From positions 1-39,311 of IMG/VR virus record IMGVR_UViG_3300025141_000268: 39,311 nucleotides of DNA, one strand, 5' to 3'. The stretch's first letter is position 1. The number at the start of each line of letters is the position of its first letter. The DNA is from a virus. The position numbers and the translations under genes are program-made. The notes below the pieces were generated by a model that saw nothing but the letters and a program-made list of their open reading frames with translations, was not told where the DNA came from and did no database searches. Below are positions 3,300-32,989 of the stretch, piece after piece.

Positions 3300-3310
3300 A
3301 AATGTTATTC

Positions 3311-3318
3311 TATAAATA
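3311..3318 (+). promoter_or_regulatory. T4-late-like TATAAATA box
   Basis: An exact TATAAATA lies 12 bp before the ATG of the HAD gene. This octamer is the late-promoter -10 of T4-like phages. Its use here is inferred from position. Confidence 0.4.
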
Positions 3319-3330
3319 GGAATATATTAA

Positions 3331-4029
3331 ATGTCATTAAATGAAAAAATTATTAGAAACTATGTAAGAAATTTAATTTTATTTGAACAAACTACTGGTA
3401 AATTAAGAATTTTTGATTTTGATGACACACTTGTACAAACATCTTGCAAAATATTAATAGTTGATAAATCAACAGGTGATATAGTAAGACAAATATCACC
3501 AGCAGAATATGGAAATGTTAATCAAAATCCACGTGCAGTATTAAAATCAAATGAAGAATATGACTATGTTCAATTTTCAGATGTACTAGATCCTCAAGAA
3601 ATAAATTGGACAATACAAATATTGAAAAAAGTCGTTGGTAGTGATACATCAAACGCAATAATATTAACAGCAAGAGGTGATGTTGCCAAGGAAAATATTA
3701 ATCAATTTCTTGAGAACATTGGAATATCTGGCGTTCCTGTAATAACATTAGGTAGTAGTGATCCAATGGACAAAGTTAAATTTATGTATGATAAACTTCT
3801 CGATGGTGTAACTGATATTAAATTTTTTGATGATTCCGAAGCAAATGTAACTGCTACAAAATTATTACATACTGAATTAAAAAAACCAGTTGGTTCAAGA
3901 AATCCAGATTTTTTTACAAAAGATATTAATAATGAGTATTATAATATTTTAAATAAACAAAACGCCCCTATAAACGCAAGAATTTATGCAACTAAAGTTA
4001 ATATACCAGAATTAACAAAGTTTTGTTAA
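3331..4029 (+). CDS. HAD-superfamily phosphatase
   Basis: The product has 232 aa. HAD motifs are in order: motif I IFDFDDTLV (residues 27-35), motif II ILTAR (111-115), a motif III lysine region (DKVKFMYDK, about 147-155) and motif IV IKFFDDSEAN (163-172). This is the small magnesium-dependent phosphatase form seen often in marine phages, for example 5'-nucleotidase or polynucleotide 3'-phosphatase types. The substrate cannot be told. The first 20 residues (EKIIRNYVRNLILFEQ) form an extra amphipathic helix before the HAD core, a possible virion-targeting peptide. A TATAAATA box and AGGAATA lie upstream. Confidence 0.8.
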   Translation: MSLNEKIIRNYVRNLILFEQTTGKLRIFDFDDTLVQTSCKILIVDKSTGDIVRQISPAEYGNVNQNPRAVLKSNEEYDYVQFSDVLDPQEINWTIQILKKVVGSDTSNAIILTARGDVAKENINQFLENIGISGVPVITLGSSDPMDKVKFMYDKLLDGVTDIKFFDDSEANVTATKLLHTELKKPVGSRNPDFFTKDINNEYYNILNKQNAPINARIYATKVNIPELTKFC

Positions 4030-4032
4030 TTA

Positions 4033-4040
4033 TATAAATA
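4033..4040 (+). promoter_or_regulatory. T4-late-like TATAAATA box
   Basis: An exact TATAAATA is followed by AGG, 10 bp before the ATG at 4051. It is the second such box in the rightward run; its function is inferred. Confidence 0.4.
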
Positions 4041-4050
4041 AGGTTTAATA

Positions 4051-4218
4051 ATGTGTATTATATGTATTGATTGCCAGAAAGGAAAATTAAAACTAGATGA
4101 AGCATGGAAAAATTTTAATGAAATGAATTCTATTCTAGATGATACTCATTTGCAGGAAGTTTTTGATATGTTATGGAAAAATACAGCTAAAATAACAAAT
4201 AATAAAAATGAAAAATAA
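4051..4218 (+). CDS. 55-aa protein with N-terminal Cys cluster
   Basis: The protein begins MCIICIDCQKGKLKLDEAW, giving three cysteines (C2, C5, C8) that could bind a metal, followed by a helical segment. The late-like box plus AAGG supports the start. Similar MCIIC-starting miniproteins occur in marine phages as far as I recall, with no known function. Confidence 0.6.
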   Translation: MCIICIDCQKGKLKLDEAWKNFNEMNSILDDTHLQEVFDMLWKNTAKITNNKNEK

Positions 4219-4252
4219 TTATTTGTTATTTTATTTTTAAAAGGTTTTTATA

Positions 4253-4576
4253 ATGTCACAACAAAAAAATCATACATATCAAACATTTTTTAAATTAAAA
4301 ATGAAAAAAATGTTATTAGAACGTGGTATTAAATCAATTAATGATTTAAATAAATCTGAAAAATCAAAATTTATGTCCGAAGTTCGTAAACAAGTTGATA
4401 AAACTTGGCAAATAGATAATGCTATAATTCTAAAAATAACTGCAAATATGCTTCGTGGAATGATAATGAGTGAAGTAAAAAATAAAATAACTGAAATTGA
4501 AAATAATAATAATTTAAATGAAGAAATATTACCTGCATTAATTGAACACTTTAATAATAAAAAAAATAATGATTAA
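4253..4576 (+). CDS. Unknown 107-aa helical protein
   Basis: A Lys-rich, helical protein with no recognised domain. The sequence includes KMKKMLLERGIKSINDLN and ends in an Asn/Lys-rich tail. AAAGG sits about 10 nt before the ATG. The 3' end overlaps the DUF192 gene by 8 bp, so the two are probably translated together. Confidence 0.55.
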   Translation: MSQQKNHTYQTFFKLKMKKMLLERGIKSINDLNKSEKSKFMSEVRKQVDKTWQIDNAIILKITANMLRGMIMSEVKNKITEIENNNNLNEEILPALIEHFNNKKNND

Positions 4577-5009
4577 AGAAATAAAATTATTAAGAGAATT
4601 TATACAAAATGAATTATATTTTCCACAAAATAATTTACCCAAAAAAGAACTAACAATACATTCCTACCCTGATAAGAAAAAAAAATTAATTGTTCAAGTA
4701 TGTACAACTAACAATGAAATATCTAAAGGTTTAATGTTTAGAAAAGATACATTAAATGATGATGAAGGTATGTTATTTTGTATGAAAAGTAGGGATAAAC
4801 ATTCATTTTGGATGAAAAATACCTATATTCCACTTGATATGATATTCATTGATTATAATGGGAAAATAGCAGGAATTATAAAAAATGTTGAACCTCATTC
4901 ATTAAATAACAGATCAATCAATGAACCTTCAGCATATGTGTTAGAAGTTAATGCAAATTTTTGTGATAAACATAATGTTAAAATTGGTGATATTATAAAC
5001 AATATATGA
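4569..5009 (+). CDS. DUF192 family protein
   Basis: A 146-aa protein. The DUF192 core is visible: EISKGLMFRKDTLNDDEGMLF, then KHSFWMKNTYIPLDMIFID and the closing YVLEVNANFCDKHNVKIGD. The function of this family is unknown. Bacterial members are usually exported, but this one lacks a signal peptide and instead starts IKEIKLLREFIQNEL, the amphipathic segment shared with neighbours. The ATG at 4569 is preferred over an upstream TTG because it matches family length. It overlaps its neighbours on both sides (8 bp and 4 bp). Confidence 0.8.
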   Translation: MIKEIKLLREFIQNELYFPQNNLPKKELTIHSYPDKKKKLIVQVCTTNNEISKGLMFRKDTLNDDEGMLFCMKSRDKHSFWMKNTYIPLDMIFIDYNGKIAGIIKNVEPHSLNNRSINEPSAYVLEVNANFCDKHNVKIGDIINNI

Positions 5010-5347
5010 TTAATAAAAATTTATTAATATGTTTATTGTTCGTAACCATAGCACAAATAATAGTTTGGTTTAGCGTTAATGCACAATTCTTAAATGAATG
5101 GTTTAAAAAAAATATTATTTTAATGTCAATTCTTGGTATGCCTGTAACATTTATGGTTATAAAGGCAAATGAATATGGATTCAATTATTTTAATAAATTA
5201 TGGCCATTAAGATTTTTAGGATTTTCAGTTGGTATTATAATATTTGCAATATTGACATTTCTTTATATGAAAGAAGGAATAAATGTTAAAACAATTATTA
5301 GTTTAATATTGGCAATGTGTATACTAATAATACAAATTAAATTTTAA
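5006..5347 (+). CDS. Small four-helix membrane protein
   Basis: A 113-aa protein with about four hydrophobic segments. The central WPLRFLGFSVGIIIFAILTF recalls small DMT/DUF486-like phage membrane proteins, but this is from memory and uncertain. Translation is coupled to the DUF192 gene by an ATGA overlap. It ends 4 bp from the convergent gene at 5352. Confidence 0.6.
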   Translation: MINKNLLICLLFVTIAQIIVWFSVNAQFLNEWFKKNIILMSILGMPVTFMVIKANEYGFNYFNKLWPLRFLGFSVGIIIFAILTFLYMKEGINVKTIISLILAMCILIIQIKF

Positions 5348-5351
5348 TTTC

Positions 5352-5609
5352 CTACATTCCAGATTGTAATCTCGCCGAGTCTCCACAAATACATAGTTCC
5401 TGTTTATTATTACACACAATTGTATTCAATCGTAAACCACCCAAGGTTTGACCATTACAAAAATTTGCAACCTTATTTTGACATTTGGTGAGGGTTTCCT
5501 TATGACCCAATAATTGGTTATCATAATTTTTATTTAAGGTTAAGTAAGTTATTCCAAAACCAATTATTGCACCTACTAATACAGCAAAGATAAAAAATTT
5601 TAAATTCAT
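5352..5609 (-). CDS. 85-aa membrane-anchored protein with Cys-rich tail
   Basis: One N-terminal helix (KFFIFAVLVGAIIGFGITYL) is followed by a soluble part with several cysteines (KCQNKVANFCNG, IVCNNKQELCICGD). AGAGGATAAT precedes the ATG. The shape (anchor plus short periplasmic domain) would suit an i-spanin-like or envelope protein, but no motif proves it. Confidence 0.5.
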   Translation of the reverse strand: MNLKFFIFAVLVGAIIGFGITYLTLNKNYDNQLLGHKETLTKCQNKVANFCNGQTLGGLRLNTIVCNNKQELCICGDSARLQSGM

Positions 5610-5625
5610 TTAATATTATCCTCTT

Positions 5626-5937
5626 TTATAAAAATACCATAAATGCTATTTTACAGTGTTTTATAAAAATATAAATATATAATAAAGTTACAGGTATTAA
5701 TAGGAATTGTAATAATTTTCTATTCCTTAAAATCCAAAATATATAACATACCATTAATGATATGAATAATTTTATAAAAATAAATAATTCCCAACCCTTT
5801 TGAATTAATACATCCATTAATGGATTGAGTTCAATAGCATATCCATGTGAAACAAAATATAGGGTTGAAAATGCATCAATAATATTTAATATAGCTAGCA
5901 ATATGATAATATGACCAATTATATTATTAATTTTCAT
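5626..5937 (-). CDS. DUF5658-like membrane protein
   Basis: A 103-aa protein with three to four hydrophobic segments. The pattern IIDAFSTLYFVSHGYAIELNP matches the DUF5658 family (D-x-x-x-T...G-x-A-x-E-x-N-P). Function is unknown. It lies 3 nt after the stop of the MopE/VWA lipoprotein gene in sequence, reading in the same direction. Confidence 0.6.
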   Translation of the reverse strand: MKINNIIGHIIILLAILNIIDAFSTLYFVSHGYAIELNPLMDVLIQKGWELFIFIKLFISLMVCYIFWILRNRKLLQFLLIPVTLLYIYIFIKHCKIAFMVFL

Positions 5938-5940
5938 ACA

Positions 5941-8181
5941 TTATGGACCTAAAGTTTTACCACCACACGCCGTTTCATTAAGAATTTCTAAAAGACTATT
6001 ATACATCTCAATTGCTTTCATTGTAAGAGGATAAACCTTACCACCCATACCTGCTAAAGCAAGAGCCTCGTAATTATCTGGTGATCCGAAATCTATTAAC
6101 CATTGTTGGGTAAAAGCATAAACTGATAATTCATCAGCCATGTTAATCATATTAACTAACATTGATTCTGTAATTTGGGGATTTAAATAACTTTGACCTT
6201 CTTCATCTGAAAATAAGATAATTACATGTTTTGCATCACTTCTCCAACTAATATTCCATAGATCTATAGGCGGTGTAGAAGAATTTGAACTCCCCCATGT
6301 GTCCGTCGCCCAACTTAAATCCGTTAATTGGTATGGTAACGATGCAGCCCCAATTAAATTATGTATTGCCAAATAAATAGCGTCATAATTTTGCTCAGAA
6401 CCACCACTTAAAGCAAAACCGGAACTTTGAAAAATTTTCATAAATGTTTCAAAATCTACAAGGTCTGTTTTTAATACAACATATTCTTGTCCGCCTAGAC
6501 CATAAGATGCAGTGAATACGAGTCCCCATTTTACAACCTCTGAATCGCTATAATGGGTTGCAAATTTGTTTAGTGCCACCATAACAGCATTAATTTCTTC
6601 ATACATTGAACCGGATAAATCAATAATTAAAAGAATATCAGTAGGTTCTAATTGTTTGTCTTCATCAATTACACCATCACAATTCGTATCAGTTCCATTG
6701 CATATATCTTCCGGTTCAGGAACAATTTCCCCTAAGCATAATTTTTTAACAAACACGGCATTATCATCATAGTTACCCCAACTACCTTCAACACATGTCA
6801 TTTCCCCTGGCAGGCATATACCAACATACATTGTTTCTGGTGGACCACTATAACAACCGGCAAAAAGATTTTCATCAATAAGACCATTACAATTATCGTC
6901 ATGATTATTACATTCTTCAGGTTTAATTTCACCTAAATATTTATCACATATAGTACCAGGTGCCGTTGTTTGTGGCAACCAATGACATACTGCCAGACAT
7001 TCTGATAATTGTAGTTCTGCACATGTTGGATCCGCTGGATCTACACATTCACATGTTTTATAACCTGCGCCACAAACAAGTGGGCTTTCTTGACATGGAA
7101 ATAAAACACCAACATCTTGTATTGTACATAAACAATCCAATCCTTCATCTGCCTTACCATCACAGTCATCATCCAACCCATTACATACTTCCGGTAAGGG
7201 TTGTTTTGCCGTACAAATCCAATTACCACCAACACAAATATTTAAATTTTCTTCACAGTCAGTAGAACACTTACCAACTAAATCTTCATCAATTAGGCCA
7301 TTACAATCATTATCTTTTCCGTCACATATTTCATCATCAACCGGTCCACACATCCCACAAGCATTTAATTGTCCTTCATCTATATCCCCATCGCAGTTAT
7401 CATCTAGACCATTACAAATCTCTTCTGGGACCTTACCACAATCACCGCATGCATTTGATACATCTTCATCTATTTCACCATCACAATCGTTATCGATGCC
7501 GTCACAAATCTCTTCTTCTGGTTCTGGCCCTTGACAGATTAATTGGCCGGCAATACATAAATTCTCCCCAACGCCACACAATTTTTCACATGTACCATAA
7601 TCTCCTTCATCAACTATACCATTACAATTATCATCAATATTATTGCATATTTCTTCTATGTCCGTAAAACCTTCATCAATCTCATCGTCACAATCATTAT
7701 CTTTACCATCACAAATTTCAGGCTCGCAATCTGTCTCACACTTTGTATAATAGATAATACCTTTATCACACGTCTTATCCTTCACACCCGGATATCCGTC
7801 GTCTGTAATACATGGAATATCAGCTTCTAAAATATGTGTAGTAGGATCACACTCAAGTTTTTCGATACATTCACTCTCTAATACAACCACAGGTGGATCT
7901 TTACAATAGTCAATGCAGATTTCTTTTTGCCAAATTTCATCTAAGGGTGGGCAAAAATAATAACCACATTTGATACAATCTTTTTCGTAAGTATCTGGTT
8001 CTGATGTATCGATATCCTCATATACATCTTCAAGTGAATCATTAGATGTGTCGGAATCATCTACCAACAATACATCATTAATATCATTATCATCTAAGAT
8101 TAATTTTTTGTTGCTTAAACCATCATCATTTGCACAAGATAAAATTAATAAAGATACTATATACAATTTGTAAATTCGCAT
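5941..8181 (-). CDS. Lipoprotein with MopE-type metal-binding repeats and a VWA domain
   Basis: About 746 aa. The ATG at 8181 is chosen because AGAGGATAAAATA precedes it and it exposes a clean lipoprotein signal (YIVSLLILSC). The middle holds about eight copies of a Cys/Asp repeat of the form ICNGxDDNCDGxIDEG, the putative metal-binding motif of Myxococcus/Stigmatella MopE-like proteins. The C-terminal third is a von Willebrand A domain with the MIDAS motif DLSGSM (after DILLII) and LFSDEEG. Such proteins are secreted, calcium-dependent adhesins. In this context it may be a host-derived surface protein or a virion adhesion factor. Family recognition is strong. Confidence 0.85.
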   Translation of the reverse strand: MRIYKLYIVSLLILSCANDDGLSNKKLILDDNDINDVLLVDDSDTSNDSLEDVYEDIDTSEPDTYEKDCIKCGYYFCPPLDEIWQKEICIDYCKDPPVVVLESECIEKLECDPTTHILEADIPCITDDGYPGVKDKTCDKGIIYYTKCETDCEPEICDGKDNDCDDEIDEGFTDIEEICNNIDDNCNGIVDEGDYGTCEKLCGVGENLCIAGQLICQGPEPEEEICDGIDNDCDGEIDEDVSNACGDCGKVPEEICNGLDDNCDGDIDEGQLNACGMCGPVDDEICDGKDNDCNGLIDEDLVGKCSTDCEENLNICVGGNWICTAKQPLPEVCNGLDDDCDGKADEGLDCLCTIQDVGVLFPCQESPLVCGAGYKTCECVDPADPTCAELQLSECLAVCHWLPQTTAPGTICDKYLGEIKPEECNNHDDNCNGLIDENLFAGCYSGPPETMYVGICLPGEMTCVEGSWGNYDDNAVFVKKLCLGEIVPEPEDICNGTDTNCDGVIDEDKQLEPTDILLIIDLSGSMYEEINAVMVALNKFATHYSDSEVVKWGLVFTASYGLGGQEYVVLKTDLVDFETFMKIFQSSGFALSGGSEQNYDAIYLAIHNLIGAASLPYQLTDLSWATDTWGSSNSSTPPIDLWNISWRSDAKHVIILFSDEEGQSYLNPQITESMLVNMINMADELSVYAFTQQWLIDFGSPDNYEALALAGMGGKVYPLTMKAIEMYNSLLEILNETACGGKTLGP

Positions 8182-8185
8182 TATT

Positions 8186-8683
8186 TTATCCTCTATATAC
8201 ATTATTATCATAAAACAATACATTTGTTATTCTCACAAGATTTTTAAAATCATTTGAAAGATTCAAATATAATTGATTAAGTGAATTATTATTTCTTCTT
8301 TTAATTAAATATGAAATACTTTGATATGCAGACATTCCCATATTGATATAATAATTTGAATCCATTATAGAATTATCAATTTGTTTTTTTAGTACACCAA
8401 CCCTAAATAAAGATATATCACCAATTTTTTTTAATTCTTTAATTTTACATGCATTATGATTACAATCTATTGATCGTGCTAAAATATCAAATAATGGTTC
8501 CATTATTTTTTTATCTTCAAATTCAATGAATAGATTTTCAGACTTTAAATATTTTAGTAATAAATTTGCTAGGTAGAGTGATGATTCAATTGAAACATGA
8601 ATGTTTTCTAAATTGATTATTTTAAAAATTTCATATTGAAAATAATTTAAAATATTATAATTTTTTGAGAATGTTATCAACAT
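8186..8683 (-). CDS. Unknown 165-aa helical protein
   Basis: A mostly helical protein of unknown function. The segment KKIGDISLFRVGVLKKQI followed by YYINMGMSAYQSISYL recalls an uncharacterised deltaproteobacterial family, from memory and unproven. It lies just upstream of the MopE/VWA gene on the same strand with a 4-nt gap, so it is probably co-transcribed. Confidence 0.55.
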   Translation of the reverse strand: MLITFSKNYNILNYFQYEIFKIINLENIHVSIESSLYLANLLLKYLKSENLFIEFEDKKIMEPLFDILARSIDCNHNACKIKELKKIGDISLFRVGVLKKQIDNSIMDSNYYINMGMSAYQSISYLIKRRNNNSLNQLYLNLSNDFKNLVRITNVLFYDNNVYRG

Positions 8684-8715
8684 TATATAAATAAATAAGC
8701 TATAAGCTAAATTTT

Positions 8716-9444
8716 TTACATATCAAATGAATCTCTAGAATAAAATTCCCATGTTAATAAATCTTGATTTTGTGCTCCAGCACCTGTCATCCCAATAAAT
8801 GTAATCCTAATATTAGGTCCACCCAAACGTTCTATTACATTTATTGGATATGCTAAAATTGGTACATTAGGTATTTCATTTTCAATTGGAATTAAATTAT
8901 TTTCTTCTTTATTAAGGTTTATAATCAATATATTATTTTTTGACTCTAAATGTAATTTAAAAACATTACCACTATTAAGTTTATGATCAACATAACCCTG
9001 TGATACAGTTTGACCATTAATTTCTAAATCAATATGATTTCCAGATTCATCTTCCCAATTGTGGTATGTATCAATAAAAATACCAATTTCACCCTTTTCA
9101 CCTTCTAATATAAATTTAATTCCATCAGCCCCTACACCATCAGCATCCCCAGCCCCTTTTGGATTTGATAATTTAAAATTAAATTCAGTACTGAATTCGC
9201 CACTTTCACCAATTTTGAAATCACTTAAACATGATAATTTACCAACTTGATTAAAATCATCTGTTAGCCTAATGCCTTGTTTACCATCAAATTCTGTTGT
9301 TATTACTTGTGCAGGGCCACTTAATTGAAATCCCAATAGATCATTAAAATCATCATATTTAATTGAATTAAGGGAACTTTTATTTGATAAAGAAGATTTT
9401 GAAAATTCATAAATAAAAGTTTTTATACTATCACGTAATTTCAT
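8716..9444 (-). CDS. L-type (legume-lectin-like) carbohydrate-binding protein
   Basis: A 242-aa protein. Lectin features include an ADGIKFILE strand, IGIFIDTYHNWEDESGNHIDLEI (the metal/sugar loop D-x-Y/F-x-N) and a terminal FIGMTGAGAQNQDLLTWEF like the GFSASTG...W-F ending of L-type lectins. No signal peptide; it starts LRDSIKTFIYEF, an amphipathic segment shared with neighbours, which suggests delivery into virions rather than secretion. It may bind host surface glycans. GGAT precedes the ATG. Confidence 0.75.
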   Translation of the reverse strand: MKLRDSIKTFIYEFSKSSLSNKSSLNSIKYDDFNDLLGFQLSGPAQVITTEFDGKQGIRLTDDFNQVGKLSCLSDFKIGESGEFSTEFNFKLSNPKGAGDADGVGADGIKFILEGEKGEIGIFIDTYHNWEDESGNHIDLEINGQTVSQGYVDHKLNSGNVFKLHLESKNNILIINLNKEENNLIPIENEIPNVPILAYPINVIERLGGPNIRITFIGMTGAGAQNQDLLTWEFYSRDSFDM

Positions 9445-9472
9445 AATTAATATCCATTATATTAATTAAATA

Positions 9473-10000
9473 TTAGTTTATGAAATTTAAAATTTCATTT
9501 AATTCACGTTCTATATTTTCATCTTCAACATTTAAACAAAATGTTTCACAATTTGAAATTTCTGTAAATTTAAAATATAAATCATTAATTTCCAACAATT
9601 TAGAAGGAATTAATAAATCAGGCCTATCAGGATCAATTAAACCATCATAATAATTTCTATAACAAATTATTATTTTTGCACCTAATTTAGAAAATTCTTT
9701 ATCTGATTTAAAAGTTGCAGTATTATCTGTTTCCCGACCAAATGCATGTGAATATACCCACTCACATGGAAAACCTCGATCCATAATTAGTGATAGACCT
9801 GTTTGTTTAATTATATCAATCATACGAGGATCTGCATATCGCATTTCATTTATAAAAAATTCCGGTGACTTTTTAAAATTATTTTTTTCAGTGGATGCCT
9901 TAAAATAAGGTATGTCAAGTTTTTTTGATAGTGCTTTTGATATTTCAGTCTTACCTGTCATATCTGCACCACAAAAAATAATAATTTTTTGTTCCTTCAT
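9473..10000 (-). CDS. P-loop nucleotide kinase (thymidylate/deoxynucleoside-kinase-like)
   Basis: A 175-aa protein. The Walker A motif GADMTGKTEIS (about 11-21) and the DRG motif (MDRGFPCEWVYS) are typical of nucleoside and nucleotide kinases, including phage dNMP kinases. The exact base cannot be assigned. It would supply nucleotides for DNA synthesis. Confidence 0.65.
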   Translation of the reverse strand: MKEQKIIIFCGADMTGKTEISKALSKKLDIPYFKASTEKNNFKKSPEFFINEMRYADPRMIDIIKQTGLSLIMDRGFPCEWVYSHAFGRETDNTATFKSDKEFSKLGAKIIICYRNYYDGLIDPDRPDLLIPSKLLEINDLYFKFTEISNCETFCLNVEDENIERELNEILNFIN

Positions 10001-10025
10001 AATTTTATTATTATAATATTTTTAT

Positions 10026-10211
10026 TTAATGTATTTTTATTGCTTGCTGGATTGCGTCATGTATTGATGGGGTATTATTTTCATTGATAATAAATGAATT
10101 TTGGTTTTTATGTTTTAATTTTCTATCTATATTAGAATAATAATTATCATTTTCTTTAAAAGCACTTATCTCAGATTCAATTGTAAATTTTTCATGTTCA
10201 TTCTTATACAT
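10026..10211 (-). CDS. Unknown 61-aa hydrophilic protein
   Basis: A polar, Asn/Lys-rich protein with no recognised motif. AAAGGAATTCTAT precedes the ATG and supports translation. Confidence 0.45.
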   Translation of the reverse strand: MYKNEHEKFTIESEISAFKENDNYYSNIDRKLKHKNQNSFIINENNTPSIHDAIQQAIKIH

Positions 10212-10278
10212 ATAGAATTCCTTTATAATGTTTGGATGTTATTTAAATATGGTTTATAAATTAAAAATTATTAATTAT

Positions 10279-12906
10279 TTACGCTATTTTTGATTCTAAT
10301 AGCTTAATAAAGTTTTTATAGTGTTTCTTTTGTTCTATCAGGTTCTTTTTTGCATAATCTAAGGCGATTATTGCATCAAACCATTCACGCATTGAATATT
10401 TTTCTGCAGCTTCTTTTGATTTAAAGTATCGTATCTTTTTAATGCCGGTTTTCGTACCTTTGGGTTTTGCTCCCCACACCTTACCTCTTAAGATTCTCTC
10501 TACTCCCCGGCCTTTCTCTTGTCCTTTTCGTTTCCAAGTTGTACCTGGGTCGCGTTTTACTCTTTTAGTTCTCTTTTTTATTTGAAGTGCCGTAGCCTGC
10601 TCACCCTTTGCTTTACGGATTTTCTTAAGTTTTACAATTAAATCATCCTTTTTCATCTTGCCATAGCCTTTAATCCCCCTGGCTTTAGCCATTTTTTTAA
10701 GGGTACCCATATCAAGGCCTTTATAAGAAGGAATTTTTGCAAGATTTGAAGTTTTAACTTTTTCAATCCTCTTACGCTTTTTCTTTTTTTCCTTTTCCGG
10801 TTCTTCTAATTCTTCTTCTTTCTCTTTTTCTTTTCTCTTATCAATAATTGTAATCTTTGTATTTGGATCATCTAAATCAACTTCTTCAAGTTGGTCATCA
10901 AGTTTGGTTTTTAATTTAGGAAAAATATCAAGTGTATCACCTTTAAGTTTCATTGGTGCAATATAATCAAGAGTAAATCGATATTCGCCACCTGCTGCTT
11001 CAATTTCTTCAGAACCAGATAAACCTTTAACAAAAATTTCGGTACGTTCATTAAGAATCATAGAATTATTGCGCAGCATATTAGAAAAAGATTCATTATA
11101 TAGTGTTATTTCTATTTCAATACCTTCTTGGTCGGGTGGAATTTCCGCAGGTGGCTTATCCACTAAATCTAATGCATCTTTTAATACACCTAAGGTTGCT
11201 GTTCTCGATGCCTTCTTAGACCTTGCACGTAATAAGCCTAAGGTTACCCCGGCTCCAACAAAACCAACGCCTAGACCGGCCAGTATGGGCCCCATAGCAG
11301 CCACAGCACCGGCAGCAGCTACTCCTTTTGCTGATTCCATTGAAACCTTTTTTATAATTTTTCTAGGAACCTGTTTTGAGGTTGTTGTTGTAATACCTGT
11401 CCAAATCTTTTCTTTTATTACCTTCAGCAGTTGTCCTTTTGGGTGTATTGCAAATGTGCCTGCCCTACCAGCTGCAGCCCCAAGACCACCAGAAGTCTTT
11501 GTACCAGCTTTAAATATCTTCCAGACGCTAGAGTCATCAGAAAGAGCATTATTGCCAGAGAGCATTTCAGTAAATGCCTCAGAAGCTGCACCAGGATTTC
11601 TACCCACCGCAGATACCTGTTCAATGCCTTTATCTAGGTCGCCACCACCTATATCCATTAATGCGTCTTTCCAATCGCCTACTGTATTAATTTTAGGGCC
11701 ATCATAAGCTCTATCTATAAATCTATATAATCCATCACCGGGTTTGACTGAATCACTGGGCACCAAATCTTCTATAGTACTTTCAATTTGTGAATTAATA
11801 GTTTCAGTTTGCGTTTCAAGTATTGTTGTGTCTGTTTCCATGGTTACTGAGTCTGCTTCACCAATAATTTCTTTTACCATGTCTGCCATGAATCTAGTTT
11901 GTGATAACCAAGCCAGTGCCCCAAGTGCAGCACCAATTCCGGCAAGAACAATAGGTGCCTTCATACTACCAAGTGTTGCCACAATAGGTGAAGCTTTACC
12001 GCGCATCAGTTTTTCAACTTCTTCATCAATAACAATTTTTACTTCTTCTTCTTTTTCTTCACCCTTCTTCTCATCCCCGCCTTCTTGTTCACTCAACTCG
12101 CCTTCAATGAATTCACCTTTTTTGGCAATACCTTTTTCTTTTGTAAAACCTTTGCCGCCTAATTCACCGCGTCCACCAAATAATTTATAAACACCACCCT
12201 TAAATGTTTCCGTATCCGCAATTAATTTTTCAGTGTATATTCTTAATTGTTCAATGATCTCATTTGCAATCTCAGGCATCATATGACCATCTTCGCCTGG
12301 ATCTTTTTTGGTTGCTTCAACTATACTGTCATAAAAAGCCGCAATTGAATTAACACCTGTTAGAAATGCCGTTCTATTTTTGTTTACAGGAAACTTTCCA
12401 CCACCGTCCAAGCCTGCCTCAATATCATTAATCTCATCATCAACAGTGCTGATTAATTCCTGAACTGCTTTATTACCTTCTTTTTCAATTCTAACTTTAA
12501 AAATATCATACATTGCCTGACGATCTTTAGGCAATTTTTTAATACCGGTCTTTCTAAGGAAATCATCAACCCCACCGGCCAATGAACCTACACCAAATTG
12601 CACGGCATCCCAAAAGCCTTCCCTTAAAAGTGCAACTTGTTCATCGGTTAAATTATATTTTTCCTGTAAATCCCTTGTTATACCCTCGATTAATCTAGAA
12701 TTTAGGTCTTGACCTTTGGCAACCAATAATCTGTGTTCAAACATTATTTGTTCATTTATAGAATCAATTTTTGATAGGTAATTTTTATCTTCAAATAAAG
12801 GATCTATCTTACCATAATCTTTATGAATAACCGTCAGGGATTTTTTTCTAAATGATTCTATTAATAATTTATCCATATGATTGTATTTTGTATGCTTATT
12901 AGACAT
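10279..12906 (-). CDS. Large virion-like protein with hydrophobic segments and a Rho-N/SAP-like C-terminal motif
   Basis: An 875-aa protein with no enzyme motif. It has an N-terminal segment HMDKLLIESFRKKSL, two glycine/alanine-rich hydrophobic stretches (APIVLAGIGAALGALAWL and GVAAAGAVAAMGPILAGLG) and long Lys/Glu tracts (EEEVKIVIDEEVEKL, EKEKEEELEEPEKEKKKK). Near the C-terminus, DMGTLKKMAKARGIKGYGKM followed by KKDDLIVKLKKI is a SAP/Rho-N-like helix-turn-helix for nucleic acid. This suits an internal or injected virion protein; that role is inferred. AAGGAAATTAA precedes the ATG. GC is visibly higher than in its AT-rich neighbours. Confidence 0.6.
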   Translation of the reverse strand: MSNKHTKYNHMDKLLIESFRKKSLTVIHKDYGKIDPLFEDKNYLSKIDSINEQIMFEHRLLVAKGQDLNSRLIEGITRDLQEKYNLTDEQVALLREGFWDAVQFGVGSLAGGVDDFLRKTGIKKLPKDRQAMYDIFKVRIEKEGNKAVQELISTVDDEINDIEAGLDGGGKFPVNKNRTAFLTGVNSIAAFYDSIVEATKKDPGEDGHMMPEIANEIIEQLRIYTEKLIADTETFKGGVYKLFGGRGELGGKGFTKEKGIAKKGEFIEGELSEQEGGDEKKGEEKEEEVKIVIDEEVEKLMRGKASPIVATLGSMKAPIVLAGIGAALGALAWLSQTRFMADMVKEIIGEADSVTMETDTTILETQTETINSQIESTIEDLVPSDSVKPGDGLYRFIDRAYDGPKINTVGDWKDALMDIGGGDLDKGIEQVSAVGRNPGAASEAFTEMLSGNNALSDDSSVWKIFKAGTKTSGGLGAAAGRAGTFAIHPKGQLLKVIKEKIWTGITTTTSKQVPRKIIKKVSMESAKGVAAAGAVAAMGPILAGLGVGFVGAGVTLGLLRARSKKASRTATLGVLKDALDLVDKPPAEIPPDQEGIEIEITLYNESFSNMLRNNSMILNERTEIFVKGLSGSEEIEAAGGEYRFTLDYIAPMKLKGDTLDIFPKLKTKLDDQLEEVDLDDPNTKITIIDKRKEKEKEEELEEPEKEKKKKRKRIEKVKTSNLAKIPSYKGLDMGTLKKMAKARGIKGYGKMKKDDLIVKLKKIRKAKGEQATALQIKKRTKRVKRDPGTTWKRKGQEKGRGVERILRGKVWGAKPKGTKTGIKKIRYFKSKEAAEKYSMREWFDAIIALDYAKKNLIEQKKHYKNFIKLLESKIA

Positions 12907-12955
12907 TTAATTTCCTTCTATCGACATAATAAATATTTTGTATGAAATAAAAAAA

Positions 12956-13072
12956 TTACCTATGATACCTTTTATATAATTTAAGTGACATATAAATTAA
13001 AAATATAGTTCCAAGTAATAGGCTTATTATTTTTGTTACCCCTACCGGATGCCATACAAATTGTAGATCCAT
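12956..13072 (-). CDS. 38-aa single-helix membrane peptide
   Basis: A short gene with AAAGGAT 9 nt before the ATG. After a polar start the peptide has one membrane helix (KIISLLLGTIFLIYMSL) and a basic tail (KLYKRYHR), predicting an N-out/C-in anchor. Function unknown. Confidence 0.55.
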   Translation of the reverse strand: MDLQFVWHPVGVTKIISLLLGTIFLIYMSLKLYKRYHR

Positions 13073-13085
13073 ATATTAAAATCCT

Positions 13086-13784
13086 TTAATCAATAATATT
13101 GTCAATATAATTTTTTATTAATTTTGTAAGTTGATTCTCTGTAATAATCAATGATTCACTTATCGGATTTTGATCCTGGGTATTTTTAGGATTAAACCAA
13201 CTAGGGTATTCTTGGCCGGAAATACGTTTTTTATATTCGTTTTTTACATTTAAACTATATCCAGAAACATCTTCCCCATCACTTATTTTTTTTCTTAATT
13301 CACCCATTTCAATTATTTTACCATTAATAAGATCGGAAACAAAATTTAATGTAATTGCATTAGCACCAATATCACCACATCGTGCCGTTACTATACCTTT
13401 AAGGTTATCAACTATAATACTATCACTTGCAGCATTAATAAATTGTAATAATGATTTTGGAACATGTTGTGTTACAGTTGAATAACAAAAATCACGGTGT
13501 GGGGCTGGGGATGCATGTGGTATGGATTCATCAATAACTGTTGTTTCATTAAACATTGAAATGCTATACCAGGTTAATCTATTTTTACTCATTTCATCTG
13601 GTGGTCCATATTGTTTAACAAGTGCCCGTGCATACGAGGCGGCATCCTGGTGGTCCCATGCTGATAATATACCCTCATGTTCACCACCAACTTCTATACT
13701 GTCGGTTTTTGCTGGAAAGATTTTATCTTCTGTAAATTCTTCCATTATAATATTTCTAAGTTTTTTTCTAGTTAATTTTATCAC
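13086..13784 (-). CDS. Conserved phage-type protein of unknown function with targeting-like ends
   Basis: About 232 aa from a GTG start, chosen because GAGGGTTTGC directly precedes it. An upstream ATG would add 11 residues. The N-terminus (IKLTRKKLRNIIMEEF) is the clearest example of the amphipathic K-L-R-I-I-EE segment; a related segment (ITENQLTKLIKNYID) closes the protein. The core (YARALVKQYGPPDEM, then SIPHASPAPHRDFCYS and VTARCGDIGANAITLNFV) resembles, from memory, an uncharacterised protein common in marine phages. Confidence 0.65.
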   Translation of the reverse strand: MIKLTRKKLRNIIMEEFTEDKIFPAKTDSIEVGGEHEGILSAWDHQDAASYARALVKQYGPPDEMSKNRLTWYSISMFNETTVIDESIPHASPAPHRDFCYSTVTQHVPKSLLQFINAASDSIIVDNLKGIVTARCGDIGANAITLNFVSDLINGKIIEMGELRKKISDGEDVSGYSLNVKNEYKKRISGQEYPSWFNPKNTQDQNPISESLIITENQLTKLIKNYIDNIID

Positions 13785-13817
13785 GCAAACCCTCGCCCCC
13801 ACCATTCGTTTTTTCAC

Positions 13818-13948
13818 ACATATTTTTATATAATTATATATTATTACAAATAATAAATGCTTTAAAAGGTTTTACACATTTAATCTCATGATGCATGAGA
13901 GGCCCTAAATCGTTTTAAAAATTTTTCGTGGGATTTTCACACACATAT
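13818..13948. other. Short intergenic region without recognised feature
   Basis: About 130 bp of AT-rich sequence. A small ATGATGCAT palindrome is visible near 13888. No promoter of the GTGAAA type is in the right place. Confidence 0.3.
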
Positions 13949-14134
13949 TTATTTTTTTATATGTGGACTTATGAATAATCTTACTTCTGATTCTTCGCAC
14001 CAATAACAACCAAGTTTTGACCAAAATACATGAATGGAATGTGGATCTTTATTGGTATTGATATCAATTACAACACCGATATCTTTGCTCCATTTTTGAA
14101 CTACAAGGTCACCTATTTGAATTGGTTTAAACAT
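13949..14134 (-). CDS. 61-aa SH3-like beta-barrel protein
   Basis: The sequence PIQIGDLVVQKWSKDIGVVID followed by HVFWSKLGCYWCEESEVRLF has the look of a small SH3/KOW-type barrel: G-D-L-V, G-V-V, then a C-terminal E-S-E-V. Function is unknown. A weak A/T-rich leader precedes the ATG. Confidence 0.5.
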   Translation of the reverse strand: MFKPIQIGDLVVQKWSKDIGVVIDINTNKDPHSIHVFWSKLGCYWCEESEVRLFISPHIKK

Positions 14135-14176
14135 TCTATTTTAAATAAGGCCTTATGATAAAAATACATCATATTT

Positions 14177-14527
14177 TTATTCATAAGCCCCTGCATAACC
14201 TAATCTAACAAGTTCACTATTAAGGCTCTCAGGGCCAGGTTGATCATTACCATTAGGTAACCATACCTCAACCAAATACCGTCCATACTTGCCCCGTCCG
14301 AGTGCCCTTAACCGTACCTTCTTACCGAGTATTCGTTGTTTTACATAATTCCTGCTACGTCTTCCGGCTTGTTTCGTTTCTTCAGTGCCTCCACGTATTT
14401 CAGGTGTATTCACATATGCAAGGCGTAACTTTGCACCGTCAATATGTATCTTGAATCCAAGATCTATTGTTGCAGTAAGTGTATCACCATCATATACGTG
14501 TGTAATTACAGCATCATATTCATACAT
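14177..14527 (-). CDS. SNase-fold (staphylococcal/thermonuclease-like) nuclease
   Basis: A 116-aa, single-domain protein. Motifs: VYDGDTLTA (calcium Asp), KLRLAYVNTPEIRG (active-site Arg and the TPE glutamate) and KYGRYLVEVWL (second active-site Arg). The usual second metal Asp (V-D-T-P-E) is Asn here, as in some phage members. There is no signal peptide, so it probably acts in the cytoplasm on DNA or RNA. Confidence 0.85.
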   Translation of the reverse strand: MYEYDAVITHVYDGDTLTATIDLGFKIHIDGAKLRLAYVNTPEIRGGTEETKQAGRRSRNYVKQRILGKKVRLRALGRGKYGRYLVEVWLPNGNDQPGPESLNSELVRLGYAGAYE

Positions 14528-14551
14528 TTAGCTTGGTATTTGAATTAAAGC

Positions 14552-14794
14552 TTAGCCTGTAGCGCTTGTTTCAGTATATTCGGTTGTTGGCGTAGTTGTG
14601 GTGTCTTCTGTAACGCTATCCTCAACGCTATCTTCGGCACCATCGCCTGTATTACTTGGAAATGAATTTGCAAGTGCCTGTAAGGCTGCTCCAATCACCG
14701 CCGATTCCTCAAGCGAAAAAGCCCCACGCTTGTGTGCAACTCGCACAGCATTAACAATGGTATTCACTACGGTTGTTTGTTCTTCAGTTAACAT
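14552..14794 (-). CDS. Unknown 80-aa protein with acidic Thr-rich tail
   Basis: An N-terminal helical part (EEQTTVVNTIVNAVRVAHKR) leads to a Thr/Glu/Asp-rich tail. AGGAGC abuts the ATG at 14800, so the second in-frame ATG at 14794 (7-nt spacing) is the better start. It is divergent from the nucleotidyltransferase-like gene. Confidence 0.55.
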   Translation of the reverse strand: MLTEEQTTVVNTIVNAVRVAHKRGAFSLEESAVIGAALQALANSFPSNTGDGAEDSVEDSVTEDTTTTPTTEYTETSATG

Positions 14795-14911
14795 AATCAT
14801 GCTCCTATCTAGATATTTGAATTATATATAACTTCAATTCTACGTAAAAATAAATTATAAAGTGAAATTATAACAATATAATTATATAATATATTATATG
14901 GGAAATAAATA

Positions 14912-16057
14912 ATGAATCTAGATGTATTAAAAAAATATATTAGCCTTACCATTAAATCAAGTAAACTACAAGAAGGTAAGGCAGCTGCTGTCCGGTTATT
15001 ACCAAAATTTGGTATGGAAGGCCTGGAATATAGTCCGCTTACAGATGAAGACATGAATAAAATTCTTCCTAGCTCTTATGGGGAATTCCCTGGGGAAGGT
15101 GATAGTAGTCTCATAGGCGAGTTACTATATACTTTAGGCGCACAAGGTCTTATTGATACAACGGTTGCTCCACGTATGAAGCTTGGGTCCACTCGCTTGG
15201 CTGCCATGAAAAAGTATAAAGATCCTGCCTTGCTAGAACCAGGTGAAACCCCAGAAACGGTTACCAAAGCAGGAAAGCGCAAAAAATCATACGGAGACAT
15301 CGATATCGATGTTACATTCCTTGCATCACCAAAACAGGTAGCCTCAGCAATAAATCAGATAGATCCAACAACATTTCAAACACTGGTAACCGCTGAGATT
15401 CACATTGCCGTCCGACTTGGGAATAAAGTATACCAGGTAGACCTTGTTGATCTTGGAAAATCGTCCAAAGGTGCTGAATTCCTACAATCAAGTAGCTTTA
15501 TTGATCTTAGTCAGGGGGTTAAGGGTGTATTCCAAACAGAACTTATACGTGCTGTTGTTGCAACGATGAAACCGGAACTTACAATCCAACACTTTCAGGA
15601 GTGGGTTGGCTCTAATCCTAATACTGATTTTTCAAACCAGTGGAATAAACTTATTCAATGTGCTTACACCCCTGCTAGTGTACGATTTTCGTTGACCAAG
15701 ATAGGTCTTCAGATACTTGTTGACTTTAAAAAGCCTGGACGTAAGGAAGGATCGGTTACTCGTAAGGGCGTGAAGTGTCCCGTTAAACCACTTGCATCAT
15801 TTGAAGATAAAGATGAACTTGCACAGGTGATACTAGGTGATCCGGGAGTGACATTTGCTACGATTTATTCAGCAATTGCTCTAGCACAGTTTATCGGTGA
15901 TAACTTTTCACAGGATAAGGTTGATACTATATGGGAAGCTATGCTATCACGCGCAACTACAGGTGCTTTAGCACGAGTTGATCAGGAGAATCTTGATACT
16001 GGCCTTGGTGTTATTGCTGGCATCTTTGACAAGACATATGAACCTATGAGTGACTAG
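14912..16057 (+). CDS. Nucleotidyltransferase-like protein
   Basis: A 381-aa protein. After a helical N-terminus (LDVLKKYISLTIKSSKLQEG) comes KRKKSYGDIDIDVTFLAS (G128-DIDID), the Pol-beta-type DxD metal motif, and a third acidic strand VYQVDLVDLG (about 174-182). This is the general layout of phage nucleotidyltransferase-like proteins. Whether it modifies tRNA, protein or DNA is unknown. Codon use is much less AT-rich than in the genes before it. It converges on the minus-strand array and its stop overlaps a small minus-strand ORF by 4 bp. Confidence 0.6.
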   Translation: MNLDVLKKYISLTIKSSKLQEGKAAAVRLLPKFGMEGLEYSPLTDEDMNKILPSSYGEFPGEGDSSLIGELLYTLGAQGLIDTTVAPRMKLGSTRLAAMKKYKDPALLEPGETPETVTKAGKRKKSYGDIDIDVTFLASPKQVASAINQIDPTTFQTLVTAEIHIAVRLGNKVYQVDLVDLGKSSKGAEFLQSSSFIDLSQGVKGVFQTELIRAVVATMKPELTIQHFQEWVGSNPNTDFSNQWNKLIQCAYTPASVRFSLTKIGLQILVDFKKPGRKEGSVTRKGVKCPVKPLASFEDKDELAQVILGDPGVTFATIYSAIALAQFIGDNFSQDKVDTIWEAMLSRATTGALARVDQENLDTGLGVIAGIFDKTYEPMSD

Positions 16058-30581: not shown

Positions 30582-30610
30582 ATTATACCATAGTTTGCAA
30601 TAATTTATAC
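30582..30610 (-). promoter_or_regulatory. Array promoter P35
   Basis: Weak -35 GTATAA overlapping the stop of the exonuclease gene, 17-nt spacer, TGG-TATAAT, 6 nt before ATG. Confidence 0.6.
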
Positions 30611-31285
30611 CGCTAAGCGGTATTTATCCCACGGTCCAGGTGGAACGACATTGACAACCTTACCATCAATTTCTTCTGTTTCAAGTTCATTTGGTTCAAT
30701 ACCTGCCTCAACAAGCTCCCAAAATTCCCTGCCACGATGCATGAGTTCATTTATAAGCTCATCATCCCGTTGAAGTGTCCTTGAAATCAATTCATTACCG
30801 CCACAAAGGACACCATAGTGTATCGTATCAAGTCCAGTGAGGTGTAAATACCATTGACCTTGGATTACATAGTTTACAGGTACCTTTGGGTCTTCATCAG
30901 TTCCCCAATATCCTTTGGCAAACACACTTGTATTCTTAATTTCAAGTACGGAAACTGGCCCAAGATGTACTGAATCACCCTTGAATAACAAGAAATCCGG
31001 AGTACCTCTCATCCAGGATTCATCAGGATGAACAATCAACTTACCAGGAATCATTAGATAATTCCCGTGTCGTTTATTCCATTCCTTAGCAATTGATGTC
31101 TCAAGCAAGTTTCCCCAACGCATCTGTTCTGTCGGGGTAAACTTCTCACCTAAGCCAAGCTTATTTTGCCAGATATCGATTGGACCTGAAAATGGTGACA
31201 ATCCAATGATGGCAGCTAACTCGCTACCACCGATACCTTTTTTACGTTTCTTTAACCAACTATTTCTTTGGGATGCTGTAAGCAT
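30605..31285 (-). CDS. YqaJ-type viral recombinase exonuclease
   Basis: 226 aa. Lambda-exonuclease/YqaJ-fold motifs: GIGGSELAAIIGLSPF (17-32), E62 in GNLLETSIA, GTPDF (94-98), LEIKNT (114-119) and VIQGQWYLHLTGL. The D...ExK set gives the two-metal nuclease site. Such enzymes resect double-strand ends 5'-3' and feed single-strand annealing recombination. A RadA-like ATPase is 3 kb away. GGGAGGGAAAT precedes the ATG; promoter P36. Confidence 0.85.
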   Translation of the reverse strand: MLTASQRNSWLKKRKKGIGGSELAAIIGLSPFSGPIDIWQNKLGLGEKFTPTEQMRWGNLLETSIAKEWNKRHGNYLMIPGKLIVHPDESWMRGTPDFLLFKGDSVHLGPVSVLEIKNTSVFAKGYWGTDEDPKVPVNYVIQGQWYLHLTGLDTIHYGVLCGGNELISRTLQRDDELINELMHRGREFWELVEAGIEPNELETEEIDGKVVNVVPPGPWDKYRLAV

Positions 31286-31354: not shown

Positions 31355-31387
31355 AAAAAATGTGATGGCAGAGCCTGCTACCATCAC
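31355..31387 (-). terminator. Rho-independent terminator of the tRNA-like transcript
   Basis: On the minus strand GTGATG...CATCAC, with inner GCAG/CTGC pairing, is followed by ATTTTTTG. It lies between the tRNA-like RNA and P36. Confidence 0.75.
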
Positions 31388-31676
31388 GTTATATCTGACT
31401 CGCTAGATATTCTTACAGGTGAATACCCAGCGAGTGAAAGTTAGAAACATTGTAATCAATTCCGTGGACCGCTTTACCAACTTAAGCTATGGCCCTGATC
31501 GGAGCCAGCGCGGTTCGAACACGCATTTAATATCTCCTGCTTCATGCAGGCGCCACCCACATTATGGTTATTTTTTAGTCTACTGATTACGCACCAACTC
31601 TCCCCCTCCATTTTAATCCTATTTTCACTCATTCATATTGGTTACTAAAAATTACCATTAAGTAATCTCCTTCACC
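31388..31676 (-). ncRNA. Candidate circularly permuted tRNA-like (tmRNA-like) RNA
   Basis: Read on the minus strand: a TGGGT strand (31559-31555), a variable-arm-like hairpin CCTGC/GCAGG (31550-31536), a 5-bp T-arm with TTCGAAC loop (31524-31508), TGGCTCC (31507-31501), a GATC turn, AGGGCCA (31496-31490), TA, a D-arm GCTT-AAGTTGGTA-AAGC (31487-31471), G, then GTCCA (31469-31465). TGGCTCC pairs with AGGGCCA at 6 of 7 positions and GTCCA pairs with TGGGT, so all tRNA helices except the anticodon loop form in permuted order. A long hairpin (31387-31434) and a terminator follow. P37 drives it. A 45-codon ORF also crosses it. Confidence 0.5.
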
Positions 31677-31682
31677 TACTTA

Positions 31683-31712
31683 TATTATAATCAATTTTAA
31701 TCCTATTTTCAC
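31683..31712 (-). promoter_or_regulatory. Array promoter P37
   Basis: -35 GTGAAA, 18-nt spacer, TATAAT. A second copy of its -35 and spacer without a -10 occurs at about 31609-31628. Confidence 0.75.
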
Positions 31713-31864
31713 TATCTAGTTTTCTTTGCAGCGTTTAAATAATTAGTTTGTGTTTCCGAAATCTTTCGTTCCATTTCTTGTAATCGTTGTTCATGTTTAT
31801 ATAATCCATAAACAAAAAATCCGACCGCAGTTACCAACATGGCAATTGAGAAAAACAAATTCAT
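31712..31864 (-). CDS. 50-aa membrane-anchored coiled-coil protein
   Basis: One helix (LFFSIAMLVTAVGFFVYGLY) followed by a charged coil (KHEQRLQEMERKISETQ). A consensus AAGGAGGTTGATT precedes the ATG. It lies downstream of three tRNA genes in the P38 transcript. Confidence 0.65.
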   Translation of the reverse strand: MNLFFSIAMLVTAVGFFVYGLYKHEQRLQEMERKISETQTNYLNAAKKTR

Positions 31865-31887
31865 AATCAACCTCCTTTATTTTTAGG

Positions 31888-31960
31888 TGCACCCACCAGG
31901 ACTCGAACCTGGGACCTGGCGGTTATGAGCCGCTTGCTCTACCAACTGAGCTACAGGTGC
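31888..31960 (-). tRNA. tRNA with CAT anticodon (Met or Ile2)
   Basis: All four arms form: acceptor GCACCTG/TGGGTGC, D-arm GCTC/GAGC with AGTTGGTA, anticodon loop CTCATAA, T-arm CCAGG-TTCGAGT-CCTGG. CCA is not encoded (CCT follows the discriminator). Confidence 0.92.
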
Positions 31961-31973
31961 AAACTATCTGTAG

Positions 31974-32046
31974 TGAATCGGGTGGGGATCGAACCCACGA
32001 CCTTCAGATTAAAAGTCTGCTACTCTTCCAACTGAGTTACCGATCC
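31974..32046 (-). tRNA. tRNA-Lys (TTT)
   Basis: Acceptor GGATCGG/CCGATTC, anticodon loop CTTTTAA, T-arm GTGGG-TTCGATC-CCCAC. CCA not encoded (CTA). Confidence 0.93.
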
Positions 32047-32053
32047 ATTTGTG

Positions 32054-32127
32054 TACGCCCACCAGGACTTGAACCTGGGCCAACCACCTTATAAGAGTGG
32101 CACTCTAACCTACTGAGTTACAGGCGC
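32054..32127 (-). tRNA. tRNA-Ile (TAT)
   Basis: Acceptor GCGCCTG/TGGGCGT with G-U pairs, anticodon loop CTTATAA reading AUA, T-arm CCAGG-TTCAAGT-CCTGG. CCA not encoded. Useful for AT-rich late genes with many ATA codons. Confidence 0.9.
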
Positions 32128-32810: not shown

Positions 32811-32827
32811 ATATCAAAAACTTTAAG

Positions 32828-32911
32828 TACCACGGGAGGGACTTGAACCCTCACGACCATACGGTCAACGGATTTTAAGTCCGTTGTGTCTACCTATTCC
32901 ACCACCGTGGC
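32828..32911 (-). tRNA. tRNA-Leu (TAA)
   Basis: Class II tRNA: acceptor GCCACGG/CCGTGGT, anticodon loop CTTAAAA, long variable arm (TGACCGTATGGTCGT), T-arm GAGGG-TTCAAGT-CCCTC. CCA not encoded (CTT). Confidence 0.93.
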
Positions 32912-32915
32912 ATGG

Positions 32916-32989
32916 TACCCCCGACAGGATTCGAACCTGTGACACCCGGCTTAGGAGGCCGGTGCTCTATCCTGCTGAGCTACGGAGGC
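32916..32989 (-). tRNA. tRNA-Arg (CCT)
   Basis: Acceptor GCCTCCG/CGGGGGT, anticodon loop CTCCTAA, T-arm ACAGG-TTCGAAT-CCTGT. Unlike the others, CCA follows the discriminator (32913-32915). Confidence 0.92.

What the first reader, a model, noticed from the sequence alone, without database searches (positions are those of the whole stretch)
31465..31559. Circularly permuted tRNA-like domain
T-arm, acceptor 3' strand, a 4-nt GATC turn, acceptor 5' strand, TA and a canonical D-arm follow one another, with the two acceptor strands pairing 6 of 7 and flanking strands able to form an anticodon-type stem. Permuted order is known for two-piece tmRNAs and a few archaeal/algal tRNAs. There is no T33 and no obvious ALAA-type tag, so it is neither a normal tRNA nor a standard tmRNA. 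It has its own promoter and a terminator, and lies beside a tRNA cluster and a CCA-adding enzyme gene upstream in the array.
Basis: partly seen in the sequence, partly recalled or inferred. Interest (0 to 1): 0.75.

Follow-up and report, generated by a model that had tools for sequence, protein, structure and literature searches.

The report
Phage-encoded bacterial Y RNA (YrlA-type)
This phage fragment carries a gene for a Y RNA, a small RNA with a rearranged tRNA-like head and a long stem of the kind that binds the ring protein Ro60/Rsr; such RNAs were already known from bacteria and some phages, so it is a divergent new member of a known kind, not a permuted tRNA or tmRNA.

Summary
The permuted tRNA-like domain is real. 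It lies on the minus strand: T-arm, acceptor 3' strand, GATC turn, acceptor 5' strand, UA, D-arm (31524-31471). It is the head of a 167-nt RNA (31602-31436) whose two ends pair in a two-part basal stem: 9 bp, then UGCG facing a U-rich strand, then 8 bp. That is the layout of bacterial Y RNAs of the YrlA type. Rfam's only sensible hit is YrlA (28.3 bits, below its cut-off of 69), but Y RNAs beside annotated Ro-like genes in named phages also score only 32-43. I found about 100 other permuted domains free of tRNA overlap. Rsr/Ro60-like genes lie in the same locus in 31 of 57 viral and 22 of 32 genome loci, against 11 of 159 and 1 of 86 tandem-tRNA controls. Searches for tRNA or tmRNA, including permuted tmRNA, find nothing at the site. 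No Rsr gene lies on this 39-kb contig, but phages of 180 kb with a related CCA-adding enzyme carry one. Most likely role: scaffold or gate for an Rsr ring (phage- or host-encoded), with the tRNA-like head engaging an exonuclease or other tRNA-binding partner. Phage Y RNAs are already reported: a divergent new member of a known kind.

The parts
31436..31602 (-). whole Y RNA module, 167 nt
   Evidence: 5' and 3' ends pair into a two-part stem enclosing the permuted tRNA-like domain
31594..31602 (-). outer basal helix, 5' strand GAGAGUUGG (pairs with 31436-31444 CUAACUUUC)
   Evidence: 9 bp, mean pair probability 0.99; matches outer helix of Rsr-linked Y RNAs
31590..31593 (-). UGCG of the Y RNA motif (UGCGUA in full), opposite 31445-31452 CAAUGUUU
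   Evidence: same place and nearly same letters (UGCGCA, UGCCGUA, UGGCGUA) as in Rsr-linked Y RNAs
31582..31589 (-). inner basal helix, 5' strand UAAUCAGU (pairs with 31453-31460 AUUGAUUA)
   Evidence: 8 bp, probability 0.96
31555..31560 (-). possible third helix GUGGGU (pairs with 31464-31469 GUCCAC), equivalent to a tRNA anticodon stem
   Evidence: 6 bp possible, mean probability 0.30
31536..31550 (-). extra hairpin CCUGC-AUGAA-GCAGG
   Evidence: probability 0.99; not seen in the related Y RNAs aligned here
31508..31524 (-). T-arm mimic with UUCGAAC loop
   Evidence: sequence; model R1 positions 52-68; Rfam YrlA alignment
31490..31507 (-). acceptor-stem mimic closed by loop CGAUCA (6 bp; A.C mismatch at the tip)
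   Evidence: sequence; YrlA and R1 alignments
31471..31489 (-). UA linker and D-arm mimic GCUU-AAGUUGGUA-AAGC
   Evidence: sequence; YrlA and R1 alignments
31436..31469 (-). 3' strand of the basal stem (third helix, inner helix, U-rich internal strand, outer helix)
31398..31435 (-). long hairpin (15 bp in the MFE) directly 3' of the Y RNA
   Evidence: MFE fold
31362..31387 (-). intrinsic terminator, followed by a T run
   Evidence: pattern scan
31684..31712 (-). promoter-like site GTGAAA-17-TATAAT
   Evidence: pattern scan, 10 of 12 matches; consensus match only

Best explanation
A phage-encoded bacterial Y RNA of the YrlA type. Shown: a long basal stem with the Y RNA motif, and a head that folds as a circularly permuted tRNA core (T-arm, closed acceptor hairpin, D-arm). 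Inferred from the studied family: the basal stem is held by a Ro60/Rsr-type ring protein, encoded elsewhere on the phage genome or by the host. The tRNA-like head lies by the ring's opening, where it engages a tRNA-binding partner (in bacteria the exoribonuclease PNPase, and the modifying enzymes TruB and DusA) and gates which RNAs the ring handles. In a phage this would steer RNA decay or tRNA repair during infection.
For: Rfam YrlA (RF02553) is the top hit, 28.3 bits, E 3.7e-4 for 421 bases. Genuine phage Y RNAs beside Ro-like genes (BRock, Quantum, Lolly9) score only 32-43 bits in the same library. The basal stem with UGCGUA matches Rsr-linked Y RNAs such as L161, L171, L245 and L268; no shuffle (0/1000) and no tandem-tRNA control (0/235) reaches the window's score. 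Identity of the class: of 57 viral and 32 genome loci with a permuted domain free of tRNA overlap, 31 and 22 hold an Rsr/Ro-like ORF, against 11/159 and 1/86 controls (p = 3e-13 and 3e-15); every such ORF lies on the same strand as the RNA. A model built without the window finds untrained Y RNAs beside TROVE or Ro-like genes in other phages. Published function: Rsr-Y RNA-PNPase complex, tRNA mimicry, TruB/DusA modification (PMC8394870, PMC7790460); Y RNAs known in mycobacteriophages (PMC12282133 citing Chen 2014).
Against: Rfam score is below the family's gathering cut-off (69). No TROVE or DUF2828 gene on the contig, and neither in-house Ro-like profile hits it. The conserved UACUUC 3' of the inner helix is absent, and an extra hairpin sits in that part of the RNA. 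The model's hit covers only the core (25 bits), a score that adjacent tRNAs also reach. The basal-stem descriptor was written after seeing the window. No close relative of this RNA was found for covariation. No expression data.
Confidence: 0.82

Rival explanations
1. A Y RNA used without an Rsr partner, as a tRNA decoy: the tRNA-like head occupies host anticodon nucleases, tRNA-modifying enzymes or PNPase during infection.
For: No Rsr/TROVE or DUF2828 gene on the contig; a tRNA-like head without an anticodon would resist anticodon nucleases; Salmonella YrlA is not cut by the DNA-damage-induced tRNA nuclease and a decoy role was proposed there (PMC7790460). The gene sits beside phage tRNAs.
Against: The basal Rsr-type stem is well kept, which a pure decoy would not need. 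The contig is a fragment, and phages of 180 kb with the nearest CCA-adding enzyme do carry TROVE genes.
Confidence: 0.1
2. Remnant of two adjacent tRNA genes: the 3' half of one followed by the 5' half of the next, with chance pairing of the two acceptor strands.
For: Tandem tRNAs imitate this order; the Lys/Met pair in the same window scores 33.6 bits with the Y RNA model, and 6 of 123 tandem pairs show 6-7 of 7 acceptor pairs.
Against: Neither ARAGORN nor Rfam at E<=10 sees any tRNA at the site. There is no discriminator-CCA. T- and D-arms are intact although the outer halves are gone. The basal stem with motif would be unexplained (0/1000 shuffles, 0/235 controls).
Confidence: 0.05
3. A true circularly permuted tRNA gene or a two-piece (permuted) tmRNA, cut at the GATC turn and charged after CCA addition.
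For: Permuted order; a G.U pair at the position of tRNA 3-70; a CCA-adding-type enzyme is encoded in the window.
Against: No permuted tmRNA by ARAGORN and no tmRNA family hit in Rfam; no tag, no anticodon loop between the halves; the tip is an A.C mismatch. In the relatives the turn is mostly a short closed loop, often GNRA or UUCG (22 of 51), with CCA in only 1 of 51.
Confidence: 0.03

Closest known systems
YrlA / bacterial Y RNAs (Rfam RF02553; Salmonella YrlA, Deinococcus Y RNA)
   Same: Long stem from paired 5' and 3' ends; head with T-arm, closed acceptor-like hairpin and D-arm in permuted order; size in the known range or slightly above.
   Different: Below Rfam's cut-off; no rsr gene next to it; extra hairpin CCUGC-AUGAA-GCAGG; lacks the UACUUC that follows the inner helix in relatives; own terminator and an extra 3' hairpin.
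Phage Y RNAs beside Ro-like genes (found here in Streptomyces phages BRock and Quantum and Mycobacterium phage Lolly9; reported for mycobacteriophages)
   Same: Same architecture; phage tRNA genes nearby in BRock, Quantum and Lolly9; similarly low Rfam score (32-43 bits against 28).
   Different: Those lie within about 0.6 kb of an annotated Ro-like gene; none is on this contig.
Two-piece (permuted) tmRNA and circularly permuted tRNA genes
   Same: Order of T-arm, acceptor strands and D-arm.
   Different: No tag, no anticodon, no CCA, closed acceptor loop, a basal protein-binding-type stem instead of an mRNA-like part.

Membership tests
Bacterial Y RNA (YrlA type) | Permuted tRNA-like core: T-arm, acceptor-like hairpin, UA, D-arm | tested here: met
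Bacterial Y RNA (YrlA type) | Basal stem from paired 5' and 3' ends with interrupted helix and conserved motif (Rsr-binding region) | tested here: met
   9 bp + UGCGUA + 7-8 bp; 0/1000 shuffles, 0/235 controls
Bacterial Y RNA (YrlA type) | Score above the Rfam RF02553 gathering threshold | tested here: not met
   28.3 against 69 bits; Rsr-linked phage Y RNAs fail it too, 32-43 bits, so the threshold does not define the wider class
Bacterial Y RNA (YrlA type) | Full-length match to a Y RNA model built from Rsr-linked relatives | tested here: inconclusive
   core only, 25 bits, and not specific against tandem tRNAs
Bacterial Y RNA (YrlA type) | rsr (TROVE) gene nearby | tested here: inconclusive
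   none on this fragment; present in related phages of 180 kb and in 53 of 89 loci of the class
Bacterial Y RNA (YrlA type) | Bound and stabilised by Rsr | not testable with these tools
   needs biochemistry
tmRNA (one- or two-piece) | tmRNA fold and tag reading frame recognised by models | tested here: not met
   ARAGORN and Rfam negative; small ORFs give no ALAA-type tag
tRNA (normal or permuted) | Complete cloverleaf with anticodon arm and CCA-ready 3' end | tested here: not met
   no tRNA hit; acceptor turn has no CCA

The most novel reading that the evidence does not exclude
A phage Y RNA that has been freed from a phage Rsr and works as a tRNA-mimicking decoy or gate aimed at host tRNA-cleaving or RNA-decay enzymes, with the extra hairpin as a new contact.
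Probability: 0.12. Interest if true: 0.6.

Novelty: new member of a known kind. Interest (0 to 1): 0.38.

Why it matters
It shows that what looks like a permuted tRNA in raw phage sequence is a Y RNA, a class that Rfam's threshold misses in phages. A simple pattern search uncovers many more in viral contigs. It makes testable what Ro-type RNPs do during infection, and whether some phages run Y RNAs without their own Rsr.

Tried and rejected
DNA similarity in named phages: no match. The nearest contig by the neighbouring YqaJ recombinase (L122, 84% identity) lacks the RNA beside that gene, and the Y RNA model finds only tRNA-type fragments in the record, so close-relative covariation could not be tested. 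A scan for window-like D-arms gave no close relative. The R1 model as a stand-alone identifier was rejected, because adjacent tRNAs score 22-42 bits. First full-length alignments (A1, A2) misaligned the 3' stem and were replaced by one padded with N (A3); its pair counts lean towards the structure because it was laid out by hand. Significance of the 6/7 acceptor pairing alone was rejected (5% of tandem tRNAs do as well). A window-wide phage promoter from the 23-nt repeat was rejected: only two local copies.

Full report
WHAT WAS CHECKED. The window is a 39,311-base viral contig without end repeats, so probably a fragment. The finding lies in the gap between the tRNA cluster (31886-32127, 32827-32989) and a YqaJ-type recombinase gene (30605-31285, minus strand). 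No ORF of 80 aa or more lies in the stretch; ORFs of 20 aa or more there are short and unremarkable. The invariant tRNA core letters (U8, A14, G18G19, A21, UUCRA in the T-loop) are all present.

WHAT IT IS. Rfam at a permissive setting gives one sensible hit, YrlA, 'Y RNA-like' (RF02553), on exactly this stretch, with the T-arm, acceptor hairpin and D-arm aligned column by column (28.3 bits, E 3.7e-4 for 421 bases). It is below the gathering score of 69. The minimum-energy fold of the surrounding 256 bases, made without any family knowledge, pairs the two ends of the RNA into a long stem that encloses the permuted domain. Measured on its own (31602-31436, 167 nt), the outer helix has pair probability 0.99, the inner helix 0.96, the T-arm 0.71 and the acceptor hairpin 0.68. 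Published accounts describe YrlA as a modular RNA with a large stem made by the 5' and 3' ends, held by Rsr, and a tRNA-like domain with D, T and acceptor arms (PMC8394870).

CALIBRATION WITH RELATIVES. A pattern for the permuted core was run over viral and genome contigs. Matches overlapping real tRNAs were removed with ARAGORN. That left 106 permuted domains with proper T-stems and acceptor hairpins, some loci being overlapping fetches of the same record. In 63 of them a Ro60/Rsr-like ORF lies in the same locus, always on the same strand and mostly within 1 kb. Against control loci fetched by the same patterns but containing ordinary tandem tRNAs, the enrichment is 31/57 against 11/159 in viruses and 22/32 against 1/86 in genomes. 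TROVE was confirmed with Pfam directly for a sample. So a permuted tRNA-like domain outside tRNA genes marks a Y RNA.

THE WINDOW'S OWN MEMBERSHIP. Rsr-linked relatives share an outer helix, then UGC(C/G)(U/C)A or similar, an inner helix and a U-rich 3' internal strand. The window has GAGAGUUGG-UGCG-UAAUCAGU ... AUUGAUUA-CAAUGUUU-CUAACUUUC, the same layout. A descriptor of this stem reaches the window's score in 0 of 1000 shuffles and in 0 of 235 tandem-tRNA controls. The descriptor was written with the window in view, so these numbers are somewhat optimistic. A covariance model built from 15 relatives without the window recovers untrained Y RNAs beside TROVE genes (L432 three times, L433) and beside annotated Ro-like genes of Streptomyces phages BRock and Quantum and Mycobacterium phage Lolly9 (45-60 bits). 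In the window it aligns only the core (25 bits, E 2e-5). That score does not discriminate, because the neighbouring tRNA-Lys/tRNA-Met pair scores 33.6. Rfam's YrlA scores for the named phages' Y RNAs are 32-43 bits, so the window's 28.3 is only slightly lower than real phage members.

WHAT DIFFERS. The window's RNA has an extra hairpin (CCUGC-AUGAA-GCAGG) and lacks the UACUUC that follows the inner helix in relatives. It is longer (167 nt against about 120-150) and is followed by a long hairpin and a terminator. No Rsr, TROVE or DUF2828 gene is on the contig. But phages of 180 kb with the closest CCA-adding enzyme (55-60% identity; one also shares the window's MopE-like protein) encode TROVE proteins. 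In one of them (L436) the TROVE gene has several UGCCG-type stem sequences upstream (by eye). The partner gene may therefore lie off this fragment.

MECHANISM. Shown here: anatomy, family membership of the permuted core, and gene association of the class. Inferred: binding of the basal stem by an Rsr ring; the tRNA-like head engaging PNPase or another tRNA-binding enzyme; effect on RNA decay or tRNA repair in the infected cell. These rest on work in Deinococcus and Salmonella as summarised in PMC8394870 and PMC7790460. Because the acceptor hairpin is closed, and is often a stable tetraloop in relatives (22 of 51), charging or cleavage at the turn is not expected.

NOVELTY. Y RNAs have been reported in mycobacteriophages (Chen 2014, cited in PMC12282133), one prophage annotation lists YrlA (PMC8190616), and TROVE proteins are known in jumbo phages (PMC7824862). 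The case is a divergent new member of a known kind.

Noticed in passing
L035, L066, L092, L096, L180 (and L036, L165, L177 records): Permuted Y RNA domains, most with a UNACAGCAA-type motif in the 5' stem, lie in phage contigs that carry DUF2828/DUF7788 proteins instead of TROVE. A modest-confidence model of one (pLDDT 69) has the TROVE domain (9kop) and Deinococcus Rsr (2nvo) as its two best PDB fold matches. A second Ro60-like family partnered with Y RNAs; 682 named phages carry such proteins, some annotated as Ro-like.
   Followed up: partly
L568 (Bacteroides phage crAss001) 4080-4360: Weak Y RNA model hits (22-23 bits) in the unannotated gap just downstream of the TROVE gene of crAss001; an Rfam tRNA hit at 4163-4306 overlaps, so this may be an intron-containing tRNA instead.
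   Followed up: no
L436 and L437 upstream of the TROVE ORF: Several short stem sequences with AAUGCCG...ACAU...CUUGU(C/U) motifs upstream of the TROVE gene, looking like Y RNAs without a tRNA-like head.
   Followed up: no
L149, L287, L115 and others, just 5' of the T-arm: Some Y RNAs carry CUGUUAA or CUGCUAA loops that look like a tRNA anticodon loop (GUU, GCU) immediately before the T-arm.
   Followed up: no
window 31607-31629 and 31691-31713: A 23-nt direct repeat (96% identical, 84 bp apart) upstream of the Y RNA, one copy ending about 5 nt before its outer helix and the other overlapping the promoter-like site.
   Followed up: partly
window 1-15000 against 16500-39311: Base composition changes from mostly 23-39% GC to 36-53% GC; both halves have homologs in the same 148-180 kb phage contigs (MopE-like protein and CCA-adding enzyme), so a chimeric contig is not required.
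   Followed up: partly
window 5941-8223 (-): 760-aa protein with MopE metal-binding repeats (Pfam) and, by eye, a vWA-like C-terminal stretch in a phage contig.
   Followed up: no
L177 (IMGVR_UViG_3300031993_000179): DUF2828 reading frame broken by in-frame TGA codons, suggesting TGA recoding in that phage.
   Followed up: no
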